Part shown: in pieces, positions 1-19,412 of the stretch | Position numbering within the stretch: the first letter of the stretch is position 1 | Layout of the letters: each line of letters begins with the position of its first letter | From: Asanoa ishikariensis | GTDB lineage: Bacteria; Actinomycetota; Actinomycetes; Mycobacteriales; Micromonosporaceae | Length of the DNA stretch: 64,000 bases | Assembly: GCF_900107455.1 (NCBI RefSeq) | Contig: NZ_FNQB01000003.1 | Location: 62,001-126,000, forward strand | Reading direction: 5' to 3' | Notes under the pieces: generated by a model | Database searches by the model: none | What the model was told of the DNA's origin: nothing | What the model saw: only the letters and a program-made list of their open reading frames with translations | Position numbers and translations under genes: made by a program

Positions 1-2201
1 GCGTGCAGGTGGCGGGAGCGAAACGTCTCACGGTGGTATTCGCCGATGACCCGCTCGCGTGCGGTGATCGCCTCGGACAGCAGCGCCACGGCGCCGAAGA
101 GGTCACCGGTCTCGCCGGTCCACCGGGCGATGTCGTGGCCGGCGGCCAGGGTCAGCGGATCGTCCACTCCGGACAGCAGGACGAGTGTGTTGCGTACCCG
201 CTTCAGTTTTTCGATCGCCAGTGTCGGATTGCCGGCCTGCCCGTACCATCTGGCGCTCGCCCATTCGCTGGCGGTCGTGTCGCGATGCGAGGCGCCCAGC
301 CGCACGGCGCGGGACCGCGCGTTCGCTGCGAGAGCTTCCGCCACCTCGAGCGCGCTCATGCCATCCTGCCGACCCAGGATCCGCCACCGTTCGAACTCGG
401 TCGCCAAGGTTTCGGGATGGTGACTGCCGATCGTGGCCGACTGGATCCGTTGGATGTCGGCGAGCTCATCCGTCACGTCCGCGCCGCTCCCGCGATCGCG
501 ACACAATGCCAGGACACGTCGGGTGACCAGCGTGTCCGGGTGGTCCGCGCCCAGCACCTCGGACTGGACGGCCACGACTTCGGACAGGTCGGTCTCGACC
601 GGCCGCAGATCGCCGGCCCGCGGTGCCGCGCAGGACCAACGGCCGTGAAGCTGACGGGCGAGCAGGGCATCCGGATGCCGTGGGCCCGCTGCCTCGGTCA
701 GCTCAGCGACACGAACGGCAAGACCGGTGGCCGCCGCTTCGGTGTCCCCGGCGATACCCGTCCAGTGGTCCAGGTCCCGGGTCAGCAGGAGCGTCCAAGG
801 ATGGTGCTGGCGGTGCTGGCGAGCGGTGGCGTCGACGTACGCGGTCAACGCTGTGCACGCGTCCCGCGCGAGACCAAGGTCCGCTTCGTACGCCCAGATT
901 GCGTGCTCCGACGCGATAGCTGAGGCGAGCAGGTCTCCGGATCGGGGCAACTGGCTCGCCAGTTGGGAGGCCAACTCGTATGCCCGCTGAGGGAAACCGG
1001 ATCTGCCGGTCCATCGGACCAGCCCCAGCTCACTCGCCGCGGTGTCGGGGTGGTGTTGGCCGAGGACCGCCCGTCGACGCTCGGCGACCTCGGTCATCGC
1101 CTCGGCTGCGGCCAGGGCACCGCCGGCCCGCCCTGCCCACAGCGCGTGTTGATGACGCACGCTGAGCGTCGCCGGGTCGTCCTCGCCCAGCCGGCCGGCC
1201 CGCTCGGTAGCCATGGTGGCCAACCTTTCAGCGGCCGTGGCGGGATCACCGGCGAATCCGGTCCAGACGGCCCACTGGAATCTGGCGTCGTCGGCTGCTT
1301 TCGTGTCGGCCAGGCCGGCAGCCGCGAAAGCGTCGAGGATCTCGCCGAACATCGCGGCGGCGCGCGTCAGTTGGCCCTGGGCTCCAACTTCGTTGGCCAA
1401 GGCGACCCGGCGTGCCAGCGTTTCCGGGTGGTGCGGGCCGAGTGGTTCGATGATCGTCTCGCGATAGGCACGGTTGCGGGCGAGCGCCAGGTCGGCGCCA
1501 GAGTCCGTGCCGCTTCGGTGGGGCGGCGGCAGACCGCGCCGGCGGTGCGCCGTCCGCAACGCCGTGAAAAGCGAGTCGAGCGTCAACAGTGGAGTCGCGC
1601 CGTCGATGCCCTCGCGGAGCAGGCGAATCAGCTCGCCGGTGAAGGCCGTGTGAGGCTCCTCCGGAGGTGCGTGGGCGATCTCGGTGCGGCTGGTCGACGT
1701 GAGGATGTAGGTGCCCGCGATGTCGAACTGCGCGGTGAGCGCCTCGTCGCCGCCGTCCAAGGCGTCTATCGCGCGACCGGAATAGCAACAATCCATGATC
1801 AGCACCCGGGTCGCGGCCCGGGACGACAGGATCTGCCTGCGCAGCACGGTCCACGGCAGCGCGGTGAACCAGGGCAGGTTCGGTCGCGTGCCGGGCAGGG
1901 CCAGCATCAGCTCGCCCGTCTCGTCGACGAGGCCGTGGCCGACGAAGTAGATCAGCAGGACGTCGTCCGCGGCCTCAACCGCCTCCTGCAGTGCCACACC
2001 GACCGCGGCCAGGTCGTCGGGATCGGTCAGGATGCGGCAGTTGTCCGGCGTGAAGCCGCCTGCGTCCTGATCGGTGAGGGCGCTCGCCAGATCGGCCAGG
2101 TTGGTCTTGGCAGCCGGCACCGGCGTCAAGCCCGACTCCGGGGGATAGTCGGCCACGCCGATCAGCACCGCCTGCGAGACCGCCGCGTTGGGTAGCCTCA
2201 T
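1..2201 (-). CDS. Caspase-fold (peptidase C14) protein with C-terminal TPR repeats, partial
   Basis: The gene reads leftward and runs off the left edge, so its C-terminus is missing; 733 residues are visible without a stop. Residues about 10-150 form a caspase/metacaspase fold: His89 lies in YFVGHG and Cys139 in MDCCYSG, so the catalytic dyad is intact. From about residue 250 to the edge there are kinesin-light-chain-like TPR repeats, recognised by GPHHPETLARR, LGQHHPDTAASE and IGEYHRETFRSR. No signal peptide is visible, so it is probably cytosolic. The ATG at 2201 overlaps the stop of the upstream oxidoreductase gene by four bases (ATGA), which indicates translational coupling in a six-gene operon with a CHAT peptidase and an EACC1 protein. 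TPR-fused caspases of this kind are common in actinobacterial conflict systems. The target is unknown. Confidence 0.88.
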   Translation of the reverse strand, partial: MRLPNAAVSQAVLIGVADYPPESGLTPVPAAKTNLADLASALTDQDAGGFTPDNCRILTDPDDLAAVGVALQEAVEAADDVLLIYFVGHGLVDETGELMLALPGTRPNLPWFTALPWTVLRRQILSSRAATRVLIMDCCYSGRAIDALDGGDEALTAQFDIAGTYILTSTSRTEIAHAPPEEPHTAFTGELIRLLREGIDGATPLLTLDSLFTALRTAHRRRGLPPPHRSGTDSGADLALARNRAYRETIIEPLGPHHPETLARRVALANEVGAQGQLTRAAAMFGEILDAFAAAGLADTKAADDARFQWAVWTGFAGDPATAAERLATMATERAGRLGEDDPATLSVRHQHALWAGRAGGALAAAEAMTEVAERRRAVLGQHHPDTAASELGLVRWTGRSGFPQRAYELASQLASQLPRSGDLLASAIASEHAIWAYEADLGLARDACTALTAYVDATARQHRQHHPWTLLLTRDLDHWTGIAGDTEAAATGLAVRVAELTEAAGPRHPDALLARQLHGRWSCAAPRAGDLRPVETDLSEVVAVQSEVLGADHPDTLVTRRVLALCRDRGSGADVTDELADIQRIQSATIGSHHPETLATEFERWRILGRQDGMSALEVAEALAANARSRAVRLGASHRDTTASEWASARWYGQAGNPTLAIEKLKRVRNTLVLLSGVDDPLTLAAGHDIARWTGETGDLFGAVALLSEAITARERVIGEYHRETFRSRHLH

Positions 2202-3562
2202 CGCCGACTCATGAGCAACTGGGCGGCTTCCGTCACGCCGTTGGACAGTGTGGGAAACACCGAGAACGTGCGGGCGACCTGGTCGACGGTCAACCGGGCC
2301 GCGATCGCCATGCTGATCGAGGTGATCAGCTCGCTGGCCCGCCGGGCGACGATGACGCCACCGACGACCGTGCCCTCGCGCTTGTCGCAGATGAGCTTGA
2401 TGAAACCTTCGTCAACCTGCTGGATCTTCGCGCTCGCGTTGCCGCCCAGCGGCAACACCACCAGGCTGCGCTCCTTGAACCCCGGGTCCGCGTACGTCTC
2501 ACCGACGTACGCGATCTCCGGCGAGGTCTGGACCGCGCGCGGCAGATGGGCGAGCCGCAGTGGTGTCGTCGGTGCGCTCAGCGCGTGGCGGACCGCGATC
2601 TGACCCTGGATCGCCGCGACGTTGGCCAGCGCGGGGGCGGTGCTGCACGAGCCCGCGGCGTAGATCCCGCGCGCGGTGGTCTGCGCGAATCCGTCCACCT
2701 TGATGTGTCCCGAGGCTGTCAGCTCGACCCGCGCCGCGCTGAGCCCAAGACCGCGCGCGTTGGCGACCAGACCCGCCGCGACCAGGACGCGGTCGCCGTC
2801 GACCTCGGTGCCGTCGGCGAGCACCACGCGCGCACCGTGCTCGCCCGCCACGACCCGCTCCATCGGGGTGCCCTGCACGATCGTCAGGCCGCGGGCGTGC
2901 AGGGTGTCCTCGATCAGCCGAACGGCATCGGGGTCGATACCGGGCAAGATCCGGTCATTCGCGATCAGCGTCACCTGTACGCCCATGGCCAGGTACGCGT
3001 GCGCGAGCTCGACGCCCGAGACGCCGGCGCCGACCACGACCAGGTGGTTCGGCAGCTCGGGCAGGTCGTAGAGGTCGCGATAGGTCAGGATCCGCTCGCC
3101 GTCCGGCTCGGCCATCGGCAACACCCGGGGCCGGGAACCGGTGGCGACCAGGATGACATCGGCCGGGAACTGTTCGTCATCATCCGTCACCACGGCATGA
3201 CTCGTCTCGCCGCGGACGATCTTGGCCCGACCGTTGACCACCCTGACGTTCGCCTTGTGGAGAACCGTCGACATGTCGGCGGACTGGGCGCCGGCCAGGA
3301 GCTTGACACGAGAGTGCAATGCCGCCGCGTCGACGGTGACGTCCAGCCCTCCGCTGTGCACACCGTGCGCCTCAGTGTCCCGATATCCGGAAACCACCTC
3401 CGCCGACGCCAGCAGCGTCCGCGACGGCACGCAGTCCGCCAACGTTGTCGCGCCGCCGACGGCGTCCATCTCCACCACGGTCACGTCCGCGCCGAGCTGC
3501 GCCCCCACCAGCGCGCCCTGGTAGCCGGCGAGTCCGCCGCCCAGGATGACCAGCCGGGTCAT
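2198..3562 (-). CDS. FAD-dependent pyridine nucleotide-disulfide oxidoreductase, LpdA/quinone-reductase type
   Basis: This 454-residue flavoprotein has an N-terminal FAD Rossmann motif (GGGLAGY, residues 8-14), an NAD(P)-binding motif (VVGAGVSGVE) near the middle, and a C-terminal dimerisation domain. It resembles mycobacterial LpdA (Rv3303c), a quinone reductase. It shares GGAxxLxDCVPS, which keeps only one of the two redox cysteines (Cys44) of true lipoamide dehydrogenases, so it should not be an E3 subunit. It sits between the EACC1 gene (4-nt overlap at its start) and the caspase gene (4-nt overlap at its stop), so it is embedded in the peptidase operon rather than adjacent by chance. I infer a redox-sensing or quinone-reducing role in that system. 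A plain housekeeping LpdA captured in the operon is the alternative. Confidence 0.85.
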   Translation of the reverse strand: MTRLVILGGGLAGYQGALVGAQLGADVTVVEMDAVGGATTLADCVPSRTLLASAEVVSGYRDTEAHGVHSGGLDVTVDAAALHSRVKLLAGAQSADMSTVLHKANVRVVNGRAKIVRGETSHAVVTDDDEQFPADVILVATGSRPRVLPMAEPDGERILTYRDLYDLPELPNHLVVVGAGVSGVELAHAYLAMGVQVTLIANDRILPGIDPDAVRLIEDTLHARGLTIVQGTPMERVVAGEHGARVVLADGTEVDGDRVLVAAGLVANARGLGLSAARVELTASGHIKVDGFAQTTARGIYAAGSCSTAPALANVAAIQGQIAVRHALSAPTTPLRLAHLPRAVQTSPEIAYVGETYADPGFKERSLVVLPLGGNASAKIQQVDEGFIKLICDKREGTVVGGVIVARRASELITSISMAIAARLTVDQVARTFSVFPTLSNGVTEAAQLLMSRR

Positions 3563-3945
3563 GCGGGATCGGAGTCAGGACCGCCGTCGGGTGAAGGCGC
3601 GGAGAGCGCCCGGCTCAACCGCTCGGCCTCGATCGCGAGCGCCGAGGCGTCGACCGGTCGCAGCCGCTTCGCCGAGATCTCACAGGTCGCCCCGGACTCC
3701 GCGGTGACCTTGATGGTGACATCGGAGTGCCGGTTGCGGAGCCACGTCACCAGCGCCACGGTGAACGCCCCGAGGCCACCGGGCCCGACGATCACGGCGA
3801 TGTCGGTGATCGTGCCGAGCTGCCCTTCCACCGGCGCCCTATGCCGCAGCGTGACACGGCCACGCAGGCTCTCGACATCGGCGAGCCAGGATCTGGCGCT
3901 CAGCAGGTCGTCGGGGTCTCCGTCAGCGAGCGCGATGAGGTACAC
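3559..3945 (-). CDS. EACC1-family protein (effector-associated constant component 1)
   Basis: A 128-residue protein with the pattern I associate with the EACC1 family: an N-terminal alpha/beta segment with RSWLADVESLRGRVTL (residues 18-33), a glycine-rich hydrophobic helix (IVGPGGLGAFTVALVTWL, about 52-69), then the strand DVTIKVTAESG and a final amphipathic helix. EACC1 is known from comparative genomics of bacterial conflict systems as an invariant partner of caspase, CHAT or trypsin-like effectors; its biochemical role is not established. The hydrophobic helix could insert in a membrane or pack against a partner. I chose the GTG at 3945 because the conserved N-terminal strand starts there; a TTG four codons upstream is possible. 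The stop overlaps the ATG of the oxidoreductase gene by four bases. Confidence 0.75.
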   Translation of the reverse strand: MYLIALADGDPDDLLSARSWLADVESLRGRVTLRHRAPVEGQLGTITDIAVIVGPGGLGAFTVALVTWLRNRHSDVTIKVTAESGATCEISAKRLRPVDASALAIEAERLSRALSAPSPDGGPDSDPA

Positions 3946-3998
3946 GCTTCCCAAGATGCCGGGTGTGCGGTCCGGCCGCGTCCCCCGTACGGATGGTG

Positions 3999-4844
3999 TC
4001 ACCAGATCACGACCGCCAGCGCGCCGCTGGCAACCACGGTGGCCGCCCAGGCGACCGAGAGTCGCAACGCCGGAGGCGCGGAGGCGACCGGCGGCGTCAC
4101 CGGCGGTGCGGCGGGGGCGACGGCGGCATCGAGGGGAATGTTGCGATGCCAGAAGAGTGCGAGCCGCTGCCAGAGCTCGGGCGTCTCCGAATCGGTGTTT
4201 CCGATCTGGCGGAGCAGGTCGCGTCGATAGAGGTCGAAGGTCGTGGCGGTGTAGACGGCGTACGTCCGGGCGTTGGCGACCGCCGCCCGATACGCCGTCC
4301 ACGCCGCGGCGGCCGGTGTCCAGTACCAGGCCAGGACCAGCCACCAGGGTGCGTCGGTGGCCACCAGGAAGACCGCCGCGGCGATGCCGAGGGCGCCCGA
4401 CAGCACGGCGAGGGTCAGGTGGAAGGTGATCGCCGCGCGGGTGGCGGCGAGCAGGGCCGCCCAGGGCTCGGGCACGACGGCGTACAGCCTGGGCCAGGTC
4501 ACCGCTGGGTCGATGCCGTACCGACTCGTGGGGTAGCGGTCGGCGCCGCGGAGCACGGTGCCCAGCACGGTGGGCCGGAACCACCGCCAGCCCCCTCGCG
4601 CGAACCTGAGGACGGCCGGAGCGGACGCGCTCAGCACCGCCGCCACGACGACGCCACTGACCAGGAAGCCGGTGGTGAGCACGGCTTTGGCACTCCCACT
4701 CTGCCGGTCCCAGACCACCAGCGTCTCGGCCAGGCCGTATCGGGTCATGGGTACGACCAGGAGCAGGCTCAGGAACGCCAGCGCGGGCAGGAGGGCGTTG
4801 ACGACGAAGCGCCGGTCGAACGCGCCGGTAAGGGTTTCCAGCAA
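3999..4844 (-). CDS. Polytopic membrane protein of the CHAT/caspase operon
   Basis: A 281-residue protein with hydrophobic segments at about 14-33, 56-78, 134-156, 163-184 and 262-281, so it should have four or five membrane spans. After the second span comes a cytosolic stretch with GTVLRGADRYPTSRYGID, a pattern I have seen in uncharacterised bacterial membrane proteins with the same DRRF-N-terminus. A proline/alanine-rich linker (about 240-260) precedes the last helix. The likely start is TTG at 4844, three bases after the stop of the upstream gene; an in-frame stop directly before it rules out a longer protein. It would be the membrane-anchored part of the operon, either the site of action or a pore-like effector. 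I do not recognise a named family. Confidence 0.7.
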   Translation of the reverse strand: MLETLTGAFDRRFVVNALLPALAFLSLLLVVPMTRYGLAETLVVWDRQSGSAKAVLTTGFLVSGVVVAAVLSASAPAVLRFARGGWRWFRPTVLGTVLRGADRYPTSRYGIDPAVTWPRLYAVVPEPWAALLAATRAAITFHLTLAVLSGALGIAAAVFLVATDAPWWLVLAWYWTPAAAAWTAYRAAVANARTYAVYTATTFDLYRRDLLRQIGNTDSETPELWQRLALFWHRNIPLDAAVAPAAPPVTPPVASAPPALRLSVAWAATVVASGALAVVIW

Positions 4845-4847
4845 CGG

Positions 4848-5429
4848 TCACCGCCGGCCGAGGACGAGGTCGTGGCGGGGCGCCTCGGGGCTCGCACAGG
4901 CGATGGGCGGGTCGGTGACGTACTCGACCAACTCGTTGAGATAGCCGCATCCGGCAGCCGCGCAGTGCAGCCTGGCCAGCGGCACCCGCGTCGCGGTGGG
5001 CCACGTGCCGTCCGTGGTCGGGCCATGTGGTCCAAGGCGCCGCTGTGCGGCCGCGTATCCGGGATCGGCCAGGTAGTCCACTATCGCCGACACGAGCAGG
5101 ATCGCGACCGGCTCGCCGGCCGGGTCGACGAGCAGCGCAGCGGGACTGTCCAGGTCGAGCAGTGTGATCGCGGGGGAGCTGACGAGGTCCGCCATGGCCA
5201 GGTCCGCCGGAAGGATCACCAGCGGCGGCAGCAGCGCGCGGGTCGCCGCCGACGTCACCGGCAGGGGCGGGTCCGGCTCTGCGGCGTCCAGGAGCGCGAT
5301 GACCAGGCCGGCCTCGGTGACGGCCACGTACCCGTGTCCGTCGGCTGCCCTGAGCAGGTCCGCCGGGGCCGCGTCGGACGGCACGGTCGCGGGCAGGCCG
5401 GTCGCGTAGTCGCGCAGGGTCCCTACCAC
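4848..5429 (-). CDS. Protein with CBS-like repeats and a C-terminal Cys/His cluster
   Basis: A 193-residue protein whose first 120 residues look like a diverged pair of CBS motifs: ATVPSDAAPADLLRAA with GYVAVTEAGLVIALL, then LLVDPAGEPVAILLVSAIVDYL. CBS pairs bind adenosine nucleotides in other proteins; whether this one does is inference. Residues 156-186 carry C-x4-C-x16-C-x7-H (Cys156, Cys161, Cys178, His186), which could bind one metal ion like a small zinc ribbon. The GTG start at 5429 overlaps the end of the CHAT gene by seven bases, and three bases separate its stop from the membrane protein start. A sensor or adaptor role linking ligand or metal state to the peptidases is plausible but unproven. 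Confidence 0.65.
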   Translation of the reverse strand: MVGTLRDYATGLPATVPSDAAPADLLRAADGHGYVAVTEAGLVIALLDAAEPDPPLPVTSAATRALLPPLVILPADLAMADLVSSPAITLLDLDSPAALLVDPAGEPVAILLVSAIVDYLADPGYAAAQRRLGPHGPTTDGTWPTATRVPLARLHCAAAGCGYLNELVEYVTDPPIACASPEAPRHDLVLGRR

Positions 5430-8146
5430 CAGTCGCCCGCCAGGACGAAGCCCGCCCAGTAGTACGGGTGGGCGAACGGTCGCAGGTCGTCGCGACGCGG
5501 CGTGGGACGCCGTCGCGCCAGGCGGGCCCGGGCCGCGCCGGTGTTGGCGATTCCGCGTCGCTCCAGCGGCAGCCGGAGGGCAAGCTCGTCGTACGTGTTG
5601 ATCGCCTCCGCGTAGTGGCCGGCCCGGTGGTGCAGGTCGGCGATGTCCTGGAGCAGCAGGAGCTCGGCCTGCTCGTCACCGTCTTCGCGGGCCGCCTGCC
5701 GGGCCGTCGCACATGCGGCGAGGACGGTATCGACGGGAAGATCCCTGATCATGAGCGCGGCGGCGCGCAGGGCGGCGGCCGCCGCCTCGCCCCGTCGCAG
5801 CCGCAGGTAGAACTCGTGCGTCAGAAGCCCGGTAGAGACGTCCTCCACCGACCACAGTGCGATCAGGGCCGTGGCGGCGCCGGCGTAGAGCACCGATCGC
5901 GTCAGGCCGATCAGCTCGTCTCCCGGCCGATTCTGGCTCAGGCCGGTGCGGCAGGCGCTGAGGGTCACCAGGCTCACGTCCAACCGTGTGTCGAGCAGAT
6001 CCGCCGCGCTGAGCATCTCCAGCTCACCCTCGGCCTGGCCGGCGAGCCAGATCCCGGACGCCAGCGGGTCCTCGCTGTTGAACTCGCCGTGACACGCCAG
6101 GTGCAGGACATCAGCATCGGCCGCCGCCACGACGGCCGCGCGGTTGGCGTCCCGGCCGAGCCGGACCTCGTCGCCGCCGAACAGGTCGACGATGGCGCGT
6201 GCTTGCAGCCTCGAGTAAGGCAGCGGCGATCGAGGATCAGCGTCGGCGAACGCCGCGATCCGGTCGTAGCGGCCCGTGCGCCGCCGTTGGCAGTGGGACA
6301 TCGTCGAAGCGCTCGGCGTGTACGACACCGGATTGCGCTGCAGCAGCGGCACACCGTCGACCTCGACGGCGTGCAGCGGCACGTGGTGGAGTGGGCCGTG
6401 CGGCACGATCCACACCACGTCGCCGGGCTCGGACCAGGCGCTGATCGGTGCCACGAGCGGGGCCAGACTCGTCTGCCAGTCGGCGCGCACCTCGGCACCC
6501 GGCCGGATCGTGTCCCCGGTGATGGAGGCGGCCGCCGCGGTGATGTATTCCTCGGAGATCGTCACGGTCACGAGCTCGGGGACCTTCAGGTCCTCGCGGC
6601 CCACGAGCACCACCACTAGCTCGCTGTTCATCAGGTAGTAGGAGAACAACACCGCGCGCGGCCTGGCCCCGTTCGCCGAGGCGCCCAGCAGCCGGCGCAC
6701 CGCGTCGTATCCACGCGGAACCCCGTGGCGCAGCTCGGCGTAGTCGGCCTCGCGCGCGCTGCCCCGCGCCAAGCGCTCCACGACCGCATCGAGTTTCGCC
6801 CGGGTCGACCGGGCTCGGGTCAGCGCCCGCTGCCGGTCCCGGCCACCCGTCTCGGCGGCCGCCGCCAACTCCGCGGTCAGCCGCTCGCGCAGCCGCGACT
6901 CCTTGCGGACGATCCTGGACCCGGTCAGCGGCGCGACGGTGTCGCCGAGCATCTCCAGGAACGTCCGCGAACGGGCGCTCTCGCCCAGCTCGAAGGCGCG
7001 GTAGAGGGCGAGGGCCCGCAGCTTTCCCTCGGATCGGGCCGCCACGCCGAGCATCATCGTCATCGCGGTCATGTGCGGCGACAGCGCACCTCCCACATGA
7101 GACCGCGCGTCGGCGTCCAGCACCGCTCCCCGCAACAGCTCAGCGACGTCCACCGCCTCGAGGGCCGCCTCCATCGCGCCCGGCAGGTCGGTGTCTGCGA
7201 GCTCCCACGCGAGCCCGTCCCGTGCGATGAGGTGCCACCACAGCAGACCCTGCTCCGCGGCGGTGTCACCGGCGCTACGCAGCAGGGTGATCGCTTCGTC
7301 CGTCCGGTCCGCTTCGGCGAGCGCCAATCCACGCAGGACACTGTCGCGGACCGGGTTGTCGCCGAGCATGGGCGGTTCGAGCGGTCGTCCGTCGAGAGCG
7401 GCAGCACGGGCCAGCGTCGGCAAATCCCGGAACCCGCTCAGAATGGACTGCACGACGGGATGCGCCTCGACGTCCGGGATTTCCTCGTCGCCCTCCTCAG
7501 CGCGGAGCGCCTGCCACCTCGTGCGCTCGCCCGCCGGCCCGACCAGGTCCTGCGAGAGCCGCGCGAGGCGCGCACTCTCGCGCTGGTCGCCGGTTCCCAG
7601 CGCCACGAGCGCCGCGAAGTTCAACGCCTCCCGGCGGATCTCCGACACCACCGCCTCGTTCTCGTACAGGACCGCGAACTCGCGCAGCGCCCCGGCGTTG
7701 TCGCCGAACACCGCGAGGAGGCTGGCCAGGTTGATCCGCTGCACGGCCGCCTGGTTGGTGCAGCCGAGACGCTCGTACCGCGCGAGGTTGTCCTGCCAGA
7801 TCGCGCGCGCCTCGTCGTCGCGCCCGATCCGCTGGAAGATCAGCCCTCGCCCGGTCTGACATCCGATCCTGGCCAGCTCGATCTTGCGGCGCACGACGGT
7901 CGCGACCGGTGGGTGGCATCGTGGCAGAAAGTCGCGCTCGAGTAGGTCCAGCACCTCCTCGCCGACCGTCACCGCGTGCAGTCCGTCCCGTGGCGGCAAC
8001 ATCGGCGTCGCGCTGGTGAGGTACAACGCGGGCACCAGCGACAGGTCCGGATCCGTCGTGGACAGGCCACGCAGCCACGTCTCCACCATGCGCCGCCGCT
8101 TGCCGGGCGACGCGGACAGGACCGACATTGCCGCAGCTGTGGTCAC
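5423..8146 (-). CDS. TPR-CHAT domain cysteine peptidase
   Basis: A 907-residue protein with an alpha-solenoid of TPR-like helices over about residues 30-400 and a CHAT (caspase HetF associated with TPRs) domain at about 480-790. The peptidase dyad is present: His686 in HLACHGEF and Cys732 in LSACRTGL. A further helical segment follows, and the protein ends in FAHPYYWAGFVLAGD, the usual terminal motif of CHAT proteins. CHAT peptidases act as separase-like proteases in conflict systems and in caspase activation in known cases. The start is GTG 8146, with a GGAGGTGA ribosome site nine bases upstream. This is the first gene of a six-gene operon that ends with the caspase gene. It could be the protease that activates the caspase or the membrane protein; this is inference. 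Confidence 0.9.
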   Translation of the reverse strand: MTTAAAMSVLSASPGKRRRMVETWLRGLSTTDPDLSLVPALYLTSATPMLPPRDGLHAVTVGEEVLDLLERDFLPRCHPPVATVVRRKIELARIGCQTGRGLIFQRIGRDDEARAIWQDNLARYERLGCTNQAAVQRINLASLLAVFGDNAGALREFAVLYENEAVVSEIRREALNFAALVALGTGDQRESARLARLSQDLVGPAGERTRWQALRAEEGDEEIPDVEAHPVVQSILSGFRDLPTLARAAALDGRPLEPPMLGDNPVRDSVLRGLALAEADRTDEAITLLRSAGDTAAEQGLLWWHLIARDGLAWELADTDLPGAMEAALEAVDVAELLRGAVLDADARSHVGGALSPHMTAMTMMLGVAARSEGKLRALALYRAFELGESARSRTFLEMLGDTVAPLTGSRIVRKESRLRERLTAELAAAAETGGRDRQRALTRARSTRAKLDAVVERLARGSAREADYAELRHGVPRGYDAVRRLLGASANGARPRAVLFSYYLMNSELVVVLVGREDLKVPELVTVTISEEYITAAAASITGDTIRPGAEVRADWQTSLAPLVAPISAWSEPGDVVWIVPHGPLHHVPLHAVEVDGVPLLQRNPVSYTPSASTMSHCQRRRTGRYDRIAAFADADPRSPLPYSRLQARAIVDLFGGDEVRLGRDANRAAVVAAADADVLHLACHGEFNSEDPLASGIWLAGQAEGELEMLSAADLLDTRLDVSLVTLSACRTGLSQNRPGDELIGLTRSVLYAGAATALIALWSVEDVSTGLLTHEFYLRLRRGEAAAAALRAAALMIRDLPVDTVLAACATARQAAREDGDEQAELLLLQDIADLHHRAGHYAEAINTYDELALRLPLERRGIANTGAARARLARRRPTPRRDDLRPFAHPYYWAGFVLAGDWW

Positions 8147-8202
8147 GGTCGCACGTCACCTCCACACCGGAACTGACACAGTAAGGGCGCGCTGTGCCGT
8201 CC

Positions 8203-8222
8203 GCTGTCCGATACGGGACAGC
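8203..8222. promoter_or_regulatory. Inverted repeat between TetR stop and CHAT start
   Basis: GCTGTCC (8203-8209) and GGACAGC (8216-8222) form a perfect 7-bp inverted repeat around GATACG. It lies immediately after the TetR stop and about 57 bases before the CHAT start. It could be a short terminator for TetR or an operator for the six-gene operon. There is no clear T-tract, so I lean slightly to an operator. The 80-base gap holds nothing else I can name. Confidence 0.35.
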
Positions 8223-8225
8223 GCC

Positions 8226-8798
8226 CTATCGGGAGACGCGGCTGAGCAGCAGGGCGAGCCTGCGCTCGTGGTCCTGGCGGGGGAGCCGACCGCCCCGCGT
8301 CAGTGACACGAGCCCGTGCAGGCCGCTCCACAGCACCTCGGCGAGCAGGTCCACGTTGTCGTCCCCGGCGATGGGACGGACCACCTGACGCAGCTCGTCG
8401 AAGCCGGCGTGCAGGGCCGCCGGTGCCTCGGGGGTGGCGAACGGCAGGCTGACCAACTGGTTGAACATCGCGTCGTAGAGCGCCGGGTGCTGCTCGGCGA
8501 ACGCGACATAGGCGGCCGCGACGTTGGCGAGGGCCTTCTGCGGGCTGCGGGTCGAGCCGCGGGCGGCGCGCATCTTGGCTGCGAGGTCGGCGAACCCTTC
8601 CACCGCCACGGCCGCCACGATCGCGTCCTTGCCCTTGAAGTGGCTGTAGAGCACGGGCTGGCTGTATTCGACGCGTTCGGCGAGGCGCCGGGTCGTCACG
8701 GCCTCCCAGCCCTCGGTCTCGGCCAGTTCCCGGGCCACGCTGACGATCAACCGTTCGCGGTCGGCCCGCTCCCGCTCCCGGCGCGCTTGGATGGACAT
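8226..8798 (-). CDS. TetR-family transcriptional regulator
   Basis: A 190-residue repressor from the ATG at 8798, which begins MSIQARRERERADRE. The helix-turn-helix occupies about residues 12-60 with TTRRLAERVEYSQPVLYSHFKGKDAIVAAV, split here as TTRRLAERV and QPVLYSHFKGKDA. The C-terminal half is the variable ligand-binding domain (TetR_C_13-like WHG). A longer reading from 8828 would run through the operator, so I prefer 8798. It is divergent from a DUF4267 membrane gene, and the 88-base gap holds three evenly spaced palindromes that it probably binds, repressing itself and the DUF4267 gene. No ligand can be named. Confidence 0.88.
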   Translation of the reverse strand: MSIQARRERERADRERLIVSVARELAETEGWEAVTTRRLAERVEYSQPVLYSHFKGKDAIVAAVAVEGFADLAAKMRAARGSTRSPQKALANVAAAYVAFAEQHPALYDAMFNQLVSLPFATPEAPAALHAGFDELRQVVRPIAGDDNVDLLAEVLWSGLHGLVSLTRGGRLPRQDHERRLALLLSRVSR

Positions 8799-8808
8799 GA
8801 CAGCGATC

Positions 8809-8871
8809 CTAGCATCGCTAGCACCCATGCCGACGCTATGTTAGCGTCGTTCTTGTTCCTAGCGACGCTAG
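8809..8871. promoter_or_regulatory. Three palindromes spaced 25 bp, probable TetR operators
   Basis: Three related palindromes of the TAGCG-type lie in the divergent gap: CTAGCATCGCTAG (8809-8821), CGACGCTATGTTAGCGTCG (8831-8849, 8-bp perfect arms) and CTAGCGACGCTAG (8859-8871, 6-bp perfect arms). Their centres at 8815, 8840 and 8865 are exactly 25 bases apart, so TetR dimers would bind on related faces. The third site ends five bases before the GGAGAG ribosome site of the DUF4267 gene, so occupancy should block transcription. Confidence 0.7.
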
Positions 8872-16560: not shown

Positions 16561-16670
16561 CTCTGTTCACCTCCGGGATGGCTAATGGACGAAGCCTGCG
16601 CCGTAACGTGTGTGCCCCGCATCCGCCACTGGCCAGCCGGGAACGCCAGGCCGGGCTAGCGTGGAGGTTG

Positions 16671-19412
16671 ATGTATCGCGGACCTGGACTCCACGGTCGG
16701 CAGGCCGAGTGTGAGGTGCTCGACCAGGTCGCCGCTGACCTGTCGGCCGGCAAACCCGTGGTGCTGGTGCTGCGTGGAGAGGCCGGCGAGGGCAAGACCG
16801 CCCTGCTCGACTATCTGGCCGCCCAGGCGGCCGACACGCGGATCATCCGGGTTACCGGCGTGGAGTCCGAGATGGAGCTGCCGTACGCCGGCCTGCACCA
16901 GTTCTGCGTCTCGATGCTCGACCAGACGGACGACCTCCCGGCGCCGCAGCGGGACGCGCTGCGGGTCGCGTTCGGGCTCGTCGAGGGAACAGCACCAGAT
17001 CGGTTCTTGGTCGGGTTGGCAGTGCTTACCCTGCTCTCGGAGACGGCGCGTGGCGGGCCGCTCGTCTGTCTCGTCGACGACGTCCAGTGGCTCGACCGCG
17101 CCTCGGCCCAGGCGCTGGCCTTCGTGGCCCGGCGACTGGTCGCGGACCCGGTTGCCCTGGTCTTCGCCCAGTTGGCGCCCAGCACGGACGACGAGCTGCT
17201 CGGGCTGCCGGAACTGCTGGTGACGGGCCTGGACGACCACGCCGCGCGCGCGTTGTTGGCGTCGGCGGTGCCAACCCTGCGCGACGAGCGGGTGCGGGAC
17301 CGGATCCTGGCCGAGGCGCGGGGCAACCCACTCGCGCTGCTCGAGCTGCCGGCCGAGCTGACCTCGACGGAGCCCGAGCGGCCGGCGGAGAACCGGGCCG
17401 GTCGGGTCGAGCAGAGCTACATCCGTCGGGTACGCGCCCTGCCGGTGCAGACCCAACAGTTCCTGTTGCTGGCCGCCGTCGAACCCGTCGGCGACCCGAC
17501 CGTGCTGTGGAGTGCGGCGGCCCGGCTCGGCCTCGGCGAGGACGCCGCCGCGCCCGCGGAAGCCGACGGGCTTATCACCCTGGGCGCCCGGGTCAGCTTC
17601 GCCCACCCGCTGGTGCGTTCGGCCGTGCACCGCTCGGCCGGGCGGGCCCAGTTGCGCCAGGCGCACCGCGCGCTGGCGGAAGCGACCGATCGGCGGACCG
17701 ACCCGGACCGCCGCGCCTGGCACCTCGCGGCCGCCGCCGCGGCACCCGACGAGGAGCTGGCCGGTGAGCTGGAACGGTCCGCCAACCGGGCGCGGGCGCG
17801 CGGCGGTGCCGTCGCGGCGGCCGCCTTCCTGCAACGGGCCACCGAGCTGACACCGAGCCTGGCCCGCAGGGGCCTGCGGGCAGTCGCCGCCGCACAGGCC
17901 GCACTGGCCGCGGGCGCGTCCGACGCGGCCGACGAGCTGATCGGCACAGCGGAGATGGCCGACCTGGACGGCCTGCAGCTCGCCCGGGTGGAACGCCTGC
18001 GCGCGGAGCTGGTGTTCGCCCGTAGCCGAGGCACCGACGCACCGGAGCTGCTGCTCGACGCGGCGCGCCGGCTCACCCCGCTCGACGTGCCGATGGCGCG
18101 GGAGACGTACCTGGAAGCGTTGCTGGCGGCGATGTTCGCGGGCGCGGGGCGCCTCGAACCCGAACACGGCATGCGCGCCGTGGCCGAGGCGGCCCGATCG
18201 GTGCCGGCCAACCCGGGCTCGCAGGATCCGGTGGACCTGCTTCTCGACGGCCTGTCGGTGCAGTTCACCCAGGGATACGCCGAGGCGGCGCCGACGCTGC
18301 GGCAGGCCGTGGACGCCGTCCGCGCCCATCCCAAGGGCACGTTGGTCTGCCTGACGTGCTCGTTGGTCGCGATGGAGCTGTGGGAAGGACCCGCGTGGCG
18401 TGACCTGCTGGGCCGACATGTGCGCGGCGCCCGCGACACCGGCACGTTGAGCCTGCTCCCGATGGCCCTGGACTATCTCGCCAGCTTCCATCTTCAGGCC
18501 GGCGACTTCGCCACCGCCACCGCGCTGACCGACGAGGCGGCCGCGCTCAACGCCGCCATCCGGGTCGTGCCGCCGCCGTACACGCCGACGATGTTGGCGG
18601 CCTGGCGGGGCGACCAGCCCGAGACCGCCAAGCTCACCGAGGTCGGCATCCAGGACGCGTTCCCACGCGGCGAGGGCAGCGCGCTGGTGCTGACGGAGTA
18701 CGCGTCGGCGGTGCTGAACAACGGCCTGGGCCGCTGGGCGATCGCCCTCGCCGCCGCGCGGCGGGCGAGCAAGGGCGACCAGCTCGTGGCCAAGTCGTGG
18801 GCGCTGGCCGAGCTCGTGGAGTCGGCCGCACGGCTGGAGGAGTGGGACGTCGGCGCCGATGCCCTGCGTCAGCTCACCGAGCGGACCCAGGCGAGCGGCA
18901 CGTCCTGGGCGCTGGGCACCGAGGCCCGCGCGCGGGCGCTGTTGAGCCAGGGCGCTGAGGCCGACCGTCACTATCGGAGGGCCGTCGACCTGCTCGCCGA
19001 GTGCCGCATGAACGCGCACCTGGCCAGAGCCCAACTGGTGTACGGGGAGTGGCTGCGCCGCGACAACCGCCGTGTGGACGCCCGCGACCAGCTCCGGCAC
19101 GCCCACGACCTGTTCGTCCACATGGGAGCAGCGGCGTTCGCCGAGCGGGCGCGCAACGAGTTGCTGGCCACGGGCGAGACGGTGCGCAAACGTACCCCCG
19201 ACACCGCCCTGGACCTCACGCCGCAGGAGTCGCTGATCGCCTCCCTGGCCCGCGACGGCAAAACCAACCAGGAGATCGGCGCCGAGCTGTTCATCAGTCC
19301 GCGGACCGTCGAGTGGCATTTGCGGAAGGTCTTCGCGAAGCTCGCCATCGGCTCGCGCCGGGAACTACGCGACACCCCGCTCGACGCGGGCGTGACCGCC
19401 TCCTCCAAGTAG
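16671..19412 (+). CDS. LAL-type (large ATP-binding LuxR) transcriptional regulator
   Basis: A 913-residue regulator from ATG 16671. The N-terminal AAA/STAND ATPase has Walker A GEAGEGKT (residues 36-43) and Walker B LVCLVDDVQWLD. A long TPR-like middle follows, and a LuxR helix-turn-helix lies at the C-terminus, with LTPQESLIASLARDGKTNQE and TVEWHLRKVFAKL. LAL proteins activate nearby catabolic or biosynthetic genes, but no such cluster adjoins this one. A longer reading from 16578 would begin close to the divergent hydrolase promoter, so I chose the start where homology begins. GCTAGCGT nine bases before the ATG may be a -10 for a leaderless transcript. Confidence 0.9.
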   Translation: MYRGPGLHGRQAECEVLDQVAADLSAGKPVVLVLRGEAGEGKTALLDYLAAQAADTRIIRVTGVESEMELPYAGLHQFCVSMLDQTDDLPAPQRDALRVAFGLVEGTAPDRFLVGLAVLTLLSETARGGPLVCLVDDVQWLDRASAQALAFVARRLVADPVALVFAQLAPSTDDELLGLPELLVTGLDDHAARALLASAVPTLRDERVRDRILAEARGNPLALLELPAELTSTEPERPAENRAGRVEQSYIRRVRALPVQTQQFLLLAAVEPVGDPTVLWSAAARLGLGEDAAAPAEADGLITLGARVSFAHPLVRSAVHRSAGRAQLRQAHRALAEATDRRTDPDRRAWHLAAAAAAPDEELAGELERSANRARARGGAVAAAAFLQRATELTPSLARRGLRAVAAAQAALAAGASDAADELIGTAEMADLDGLQLARVERLRAELVFARSRGTDAPELLLDAARRLTPLDVPMARETYLEALLAAMFAGAGRLEPEHGMRAVAEAARSVPANPGSQDPVDLLLDGLSVQFTQGYAEAAPTLRQAVDAVRAHPKGTLVCLTCSLVAMELWEGPAWRDLLGRHVRGARDTGTLSLLPMALDYLASFHLQAGDFATATALTDEAAALNAAIRVVPPPYTPTMLAAWRGDQPETAKLTEVGIQDAFPRGEGSALVLTEYASAVLNNGLGRWAIALAAARRASKGDQLVAKSWALAELVESAARLEEWDVGADALRQLTERTQASGTSWALGTEARARALLSQGAEADRHYRRAVDLLAECRMNAHLARAQLVYGEWLRRDNRRVDARDQLRHAHDLFVHMGAAAFAERARNELLATGETVRKRTPDTALDLTPQESLIASLARDGKTNQEIGAELFISPRTVEWHLRKVFAKLAIGSRRELRDTPLDAGVTASSK

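What the first reader, a model, noticed from the sequence alone, without database searches (positions are those of the whole stretch)
1..8146. Six-gene operon with two caspase-fold peptidases, EACC1, a membrane protein, CBS-like/Zn protein and an LpdA-type oxidoreductase
The minus-strand genes TPR-CHAT, CBS-like/Cys-His, membrane, EACC1, LpdA-like and caspase-TPR are separated by overlaps of 7 or 4 bases or gaps of 3-53 bases. CHAT, caspase and EACC1 are known parts of bacterial conflict systems; this combination with a membrane protein and a flavoenzyme is not one I know. I infer a cascade in which a sensor (CBS-like or redox) triggers CHAT, which acts on the caspase or the membrane protein.
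Basis: partly seen in the sequence, partly recalled or inferred. Interest (0 to 1): 0.85.

Follow-up and report, generated by a model that had tools for sequence, protein, structure and literature searches.

The report
Two protease modules joined in operon
Six tightly packed genes of an actinobacterium join two protease-plus-membrane-protein modules, seen apart in the other genomes looked at, around an altered metabolic flavoprotein; this looks like a composite self-defence or self-destruct locus, and one of the modules seems not to be described yet.

Summary
The six genes are real, intact and tightly packed; the caspase gene ends 144 bases beyond the window. They are not a conserved six-family system but two modules joined. 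Module A is TPR-CHAT protease + CBS-like/zinc-ribbon protein + membrane protein. It was seen at ten other actinobacterial loci: seven with all three genes on one strand, two (Actinomadura) with a divergent CHAT, one (Frankia) without CHAT and with a kinase in place of the CBS-like part. Its two smaller proteins match no Pfam, NCBIfam or PADLOC model. Module B is the published EACC1-caspase pair (Kaur 2020, System 4), here with a divergent paralogue of the NAD(P)H-quinone dehydrogenase LpdA between EACC1 and caspase, which 0 of 99 other EACC1 loci show. The paralogue has lost an FAD-motif Asp kept in 50 of 50 LpdAs compared. No other locus examined joins modules A and B. In a sister genome both flanking genes are present but one STAND-type gene replaces the block, and DNA homology ends at the block's edges, so the six genes behave as one cargo. 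Most likely function (inferred): membrane-linked, protease-triggered growth arrest or death. New variant of a known kind.

The parts
5423..8146 (-). TPR-CHAT protease, 907 aa; CHAT domain 564-905 with an insert of roughly 70 residues before the C-terminal ...GDW shared with the same-strand module A CHATs
   Evidence: PF12770 188.9 bits; His686, Cys732; insert
4848..5429 (-). CBS-like protein with C-terminal zinc-ribbon-like Cys/His set, 193 aa (putative adaptor)
   Evidence: Cys156, Cys161, Cys178, His186 invariant in 8 of 8; low-confidence model; zinc binding inferred
3999..4844 (-). Membrane protein, 281 aa, mostly helical with 4-5 long hydrophobic helices, conserved WPRL motif (putative effector)
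   Evidence: No Pfam, NCBIfam or PADLOC match; alignments; model pLDDT 75.2, no PDB match
3559..3945 (-). EACC1, one glycine-rich hydrophobic helix; may start at 4002 instead
   Evidence: PF19953 E 5.7e-22; own second copies
2198..3562 (-). Divergent LpdA paralogue (NAD(P)H-quinone dehydrogenase family)
   Evidence: NF005883 504 bits over 479; Asp to Ser at 305, Lys to Arg at 48; longest branch of 51
1..2201 (-). EACC1-type caspase with C-terminal TPR, 781 aa; continues 144 bases left of the window
   Evidence: NF047832 237.7 bits over 140; PF00656, TPR_12; end

Best explanation
A composite conflict (growth-arrest or death) locus made of two membrane-linked protease modules carried as one block. 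Module A: the TPR part of the CHAT protein senses a trigger; the CBS-like/zinc-ribbon protein is an adaptor that sets the threshold (a nucleotide or partner signal); CHAT cleaves the adaptor or the membrane protein, which then disturbs the membrane. Module B: EACC1, a one-helix membrane component, holds and activates the caspase-TPR protein, as Kaur et al. propose for System 4; the LpdA-derived flavoprotein made between them ties this arm to the NAD(P)H/quinone state, more likely as a sensor or scaffold than as a normal enzyme. Shown: gene content, intact catalytic boxes, recurrence of module A, the usual EACC1-caspase order elsewhere, block exchange with the sister genome, loss of invariant flavoprotein residues. 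Inferred: every functional step.
For: Module A recurs at ten other loci. CHAT domains near 13 of 26 membrane-protein relatives in 20 genomes against 0.19 expected. EACC1 followed by a caspase domain in 59 of 70 and 23 of 29 loci. The caspase still scores as EACC1-associated although LpdA parts it from EACC1. Six genes replaced as one block in sister genome G101. EACC1 systems are tied to multicellular bacteria and read as conflict systems in PMC7159879.
Against: No phage, toxicity or cleavage data. Modules A and B together only in this genome, LpdA insert only here, so the joint function rests on a single case. 30 of 46 membrane-protein relatives have no CHAT domain in the stretch fetched, so that family is not tied to CHAT alone. 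The two Actinomadura CHATs are divergent, lack the insert, and one is interrupted in its record. PADLOC has no model for five of the six proteins and only a weak caspase match.
Confidence: 0.45

Rival explanations
1. Two independent systems parked side by side at a variable site (a small defence island), each with its own trigger; the shared orientation is convenience and the flavoprotein a recent hitch-hiker.
For: Each module is complete and recurs alone; the widest junction, 53 bases if EACC1 starts at 3945, lies exactly between the modules; the site holds other genes in G101, G072 and G052.
Against: Block exchanged whole; LpdA is inside module B with 4-base overlaps on both sides; the seam itself overlaps by 4 bases if EACC1 starts at 4002.
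Confidence: 0.3
2. A stress or developmental signalling operon that tunes proteolysis to redox and energy state in the normal life cycle, not a conflict system.
For: EACC1 systems are concentrated in multicellular bacteria (671 organisms, 650 multicellular, PMC7159879 Table 1, passage); CBS-like and flavoprotein parts suit metabolic sensing.
Against: Patchy distribution and block exchange between sister genomes look like cargo rather than core development.
Confidence: 0.15

Closest known systems
EACC1-caspase two-gene system ('System 4', Kaur et al. 2020, PMC7159879; passages and section 33 seen)
   Same: EACC1 upstream, caspase protein downstream on the same strand, variable C-terminal part (here TPR); both pass their family models
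   Different: A flavoprotein gene lies between the two; the pair sits behind a CHAT/zinc-ribbon/membrane module
TPR-CHAT protease Csx29 of type III-E CRISPR (NF041237; PMC10028731 seen only in the listing)
   Same: TPR + CHAT architecture; protease encoded next to its likely substrate (the latter recalled)
   Different: 42.6 bits against a cut-off of 300; partners here are a zinc-ribbon protein and a membrane protein
NAD(P)H-quinone dehydrogenase LpdA (NF005883)
   Same: Whole-length homology, both nucleotide-binding regions and the dimerisation domain
   Different: At most 53% identical to any listed LpdA, invariant Asp and Lys changed, inside a protease operon; a normal copy exists elsewhere in the genome

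Membership tests
EACC1-caspase System 4 | EACC1 protein encoded 5' | tested here: met
   PF19953 78.2 bits, cut-off 23.6
EACC1-caspase System 4 | 3' protein with N-terminal caspase of the EACC1-associated type | tested here: met
   NF047832 237.7 bits, cut-off 140
EACC1-caspase System 4 | The two genes adjacent | tested here: not met
   LpdA-like gene 2198-3562 lies between; elsewhere a caspase domain follows in 59 of 70 and 23 of 29 loci, LpdA in 0 of 99
EACC1-caspase System 4 | Caspase activity and effector release by proteolysis | not testable with these tools
   Proposed, not shown, in PMC7159879
CHAT proteases | CHAT domain with His and Cys boxes | tested here: met
   PF12770 188.9 bits, cut-off 24; His686, Cys732
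Craspase TPR-CHAT (Csx29) | Passes NF041237 | tested here: not met
   42.6 bits, cut-off 300
LpdA, NAD(P)H-quinone dehydrogenase | Passes NF005883 | tested here: met
   504 bits, cut-off 479
LpdA, NAD(P)H-quinone dehydrogenase | Residues invariant in LpdAs (AAGD Asp, PSK Lys) | tested here: not met
   Asp and Lys in 50 of 50 others, Ser305 and Arg48 here
CBS-domain protein | CBS recognised by profile | tested here: inconclusive
   No match for the window protein; E 0.026, below cut-off, for homologue L136; one CBS-like unit in a model of pLDDT 54

The most novel reading that the evidence does not exclude
A redox-gated two-protease death switch: a repurposed LpdA reads the NAD(P)H/quinone state at the membrane and releases the EACC1-caspase arm, which together with a so far undescribed CHAT/zinc-ribbon/membrane-protein triplet opens the membrane. 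That would be a bacterial counterpart to metabolic-stress control of caspases.
Probability: 0.12. Interest if true: 0.8.

Novelty: new variant of a known kind. Interest (0 to 1): 0.5.

Why it matters
It offers a testable three-gene CHAT module with a membrane-protein family that has no model in the three libraries searched and is often found beside CHAT proteases; a natural case in which two protease systems are joined; and a core flavoenzyme recruited into a caspase operon. If the flavoprotein gates the caspase, redox state would be directly linked to bacterial caspase-type death.

Tried and rejected
Rejected: (1) a conserved six-family system: not seen together at any other locus examined. 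(2) The 717-aa ORF 5712-3559 as a gene: it overlaps the CHAT, CBS-like and membrane genes, and EACC1 is its C-terminal end. (3) LpdA as the displaced housekeeping copy: another LpdA, which groups with those of the genus, is at C4:272867. (4) TetR at 8226-8828 as part of the block: it is present without the block in the sister genome. (5) Csx29/Craspase membership.

Led nowhere: the single-sequence search for the CBS-like protein matched 5 of 300 genomes, own included; of the four others G077 is a module A locus, the G074 place showed no module genes by eye, and the G229 and G134 places were not examined. Fold search of the membrane protein: 51 matches, none at E 0.001 or better, best 2.1. The model of the CBS-like protein was too poor to search. 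Plasmid search with the membrane protein: no match; phage and viral collections were not searched. The tree cannot place the LpdA paralogue nearer to this family or to the rest of the class, because it is unrooted and both groupings are the same split pattern. Seven paper searches; for EACC1 in this sense only PMC7159879 and PMC8195603 came up (passages of the latter seen).

Caveats on counts: the EACC1 loci are the 30 for which the tool gave loci in the family search (high-scoring, about one per genome), 40 places that I picked from the rest of the printed list (over 150 rows printed, more not listed), and 29 class loci; they are not a random sample. The own genome's second EACC1 copy is in the 70 as L184 (only about 300 bases upstream held); its duplicate L240 was dropped from the class set. 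One of the 59 caspase domains is 1,499 bases away. The caspase and EACC1 HMMs were built from the window plus the first 30 loci, so for those the test is partly circular. The 13 of 26 CHAT flags were entered by hand; one (G117) rests on a partial CHAT match 3.5 kb away that one search does not show. The fetched stretches around the 46 membrane-protein places are of unequal length (6.9-20 kb). The LPDA query was run on 28 module A and membrane-protein loci, not on the other 26.

Full report
What is there. Six minus-strand genes run from 8146 to 144 bases left of the window: TPR-CHAT, CBS-like/zinc-ribbon, membrane protein, EACC1, LpdA-like, caspase-TPR. The next gene to the left is convergent and ends at -146; the TetR gene on the right ends 79 bases before the CHAT start. 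Pfam supports CHAT, EACC1, caspase and the flavoprotein domains; NCBIfam supports LpdA and an EACC1-associated caspase above cut-off. The CBS-like and membrane proteins match nothing in Pfam, NCBIfam or PADLOC.

Module A. The membrane protein has relatives in 39 of 200 genomes of the family, own included. All 46 other places were fetched. A CHAT domain is in the fetched stretch in 16 of 46, a caspase domain in 1 (L070, in the same genus), EACC1 in 0. In the 20 genomes whose CHAT genes I counted, 13 of 26 places have a CHAT domain within about 6 kb, against 0.19 expected from the CHAT density (see caveats). A scan of genome contigs with a membrane-protein alignment gave 8 named loci: Micromonospora okii, M. 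sp. ATCC 39149, Actinoplanes siamensis, Nonomuraea glycinis, Actinomadura pelletieri, Actinomadura spongiicola, Frankia sp. AgB1.9 and M. sp. CPCC 205371. In 8 of 8 a protein matching the CBS-like/zinc-ribbon HMM lies directly upstream, weakly in the last three kinds (E 2e-6 to 2e-4). A CHAT gene is next to it in 7 of 8: same strand in five, divergent in both Actinomadura, of which A. pelletieri has it interrupted in the record. In Frankia a protein kinase stands in place of the CBS-like part while the Cys/His set stays, and no CHAT was found. Of the 46 family places four carry the triplet (L069, L072, L073, L079); two of these are the same contigs as L143 and L138. So ten distinct module A loci besides the window were seen. 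None of the ten has EACC1, caspase or LpdA in the stretch held. The Cys/His set is invariant in 8 of 8 aligned proteins.

CHAT insert. Eight of eight same-strand module A CHATs compared (window included; L143 and L079 stand for their duplicates) have an insert before a ...GDW end; six others, among them the two divergent Actinomadura CHATs, lack it. By eye the insert looks TPR-like; not tested by profile. At five loci (L072, L073, L079/L138, L136, L137) a 1,130-1,271-aa gene follows the membrane gene; the four of these scanned have TPR repeats, and L073's protein ends much like the linker before the CHAT domain of the window protein.

Module B. Kaur et al. 2020 (PMC7159879; passages and section 33 seen) define EACC1 followed by a caspase with variable C-terminal domains as System 4. 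EACC1 was found in 135 of 200 family genomes. A caspase domain follows EACC1 on the same strand in 59 of 70 family loci and 23 of 29 class loci. LpdA is in 0 of 70 and 0 of 29, module A parts in 0 of 70 and 0 of 29. Among the loci examined the window is the only one where a flavoprotein parts EACC1 from an EACC1-type caspase.

The flavoprotein. It passes the LpdA model. The same genome has another LpdA at C4:272867, 51% identical to it, which groups with those of the genus. Among 200 family and 296 class genomes (own included in both) no listed match other than itself exceeds 53% identity. Its branch is the longest of 51. The Asp of AAGD and the Lys of PSK, present in 50 of 50 LpdAs compared, are Ser and Arg; the first Cys of the C-x4-C motif, present in 39 of 50, is Thr. 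That the Asp and Lys lie at the flavin is recalled from the enzyme family. I infer altered flavin chemistry or a sensor role.

One block. In sister genome G101, whose flanks are 82-91% identical in DNA, the TetR and lipocalin-like genes are both present, but one BTAD-NB-ARC-TPR gene lies between them; DNA homology ends at window -156 and 8225. The TetR gene has other downstream neighbours in G072 and G052 too. The five other genomes of the genus have no match to the CBS-like protein. So the six genes were gained, lost or exchanged together at a variable site; which state is older is not known. No long repeat marks the edges (one shared 11-mer), and the window has no tRNA gene.

Mechanism. Both modules pair a caspase-fold protease with a membrane protein: CHAT with the multi-helix protein, caspase with EACC1. 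The simplest reading is two protease-triggered membrane arms, with a zinc-ribbon adaptor on one and a metabolic flavoprotein on the other. That the adaptor's front part varies (CBS-like or kinase) while the Cys/His set stays suggests a variable input on a constant connector. No step has been tested.

Novelty. EACC1-caspase is known. I found no description of the CHAT/zinc-ribbon/membrane triplet in the searches made, and its membrane protein has no family model in the three libraries searched; both statements reach no further than these searches. Overall a new variant of a known kind, of moderate interest.

Noticed in passing
window 8202-8223: Palindrome with 8-base arms and 6-base spacer between TetR and the CHAT start, inside the block; only exact copy of its core in the window (chance mean 0.22 at one mismatch). 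It differs from the repeats in the TetR promoter region. Operator or terminator, unknown.
   Followed up: partly
L142:8717-9988: Frankia: Ser/Thr kinase domain fused to the same Cys/His C-terminus, directly upstream of a membrane-protein relative.
   Followed up: partly
L073:5635-9135 and likewise L072, L079, L136, L137: A large gene after module A, with TPR repeats in the four scanned; L073's ends like a pre-CHAT linker while some module A CHAT genes are short (442-634 aa), which hints at a split TPR-CHAT protein.
   Followed up: partly
L073:9135-10673 (C-terminus), also L072 and L079: These membrane proteins carry a further hydrophobic helix and an extra C-terminal region; the window's protein keeps the helix only (by eye).
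   Followed up: no
L070:3929-13076: Same genus (G052): caspase protein with many hydrophobic helices, then a membrane-protein relative, then a KAP NTPase; the family also occurs near a caspase.
   Followed up: no
L147:11323-13839: BTAD-NB-ARC-TPR regulator-like gene at the same site in the sister genome G101.
   Followed up: partly
L140:6988-9436: Actinomadura pelletieri CHAT region is interrupted in the record, where A. spongiicola has one frame of 815 aa.
   Followed up: no
window 16578-19412: 944-aa AAA_16/LuxR-type STAND regulator.
   Followed up: no
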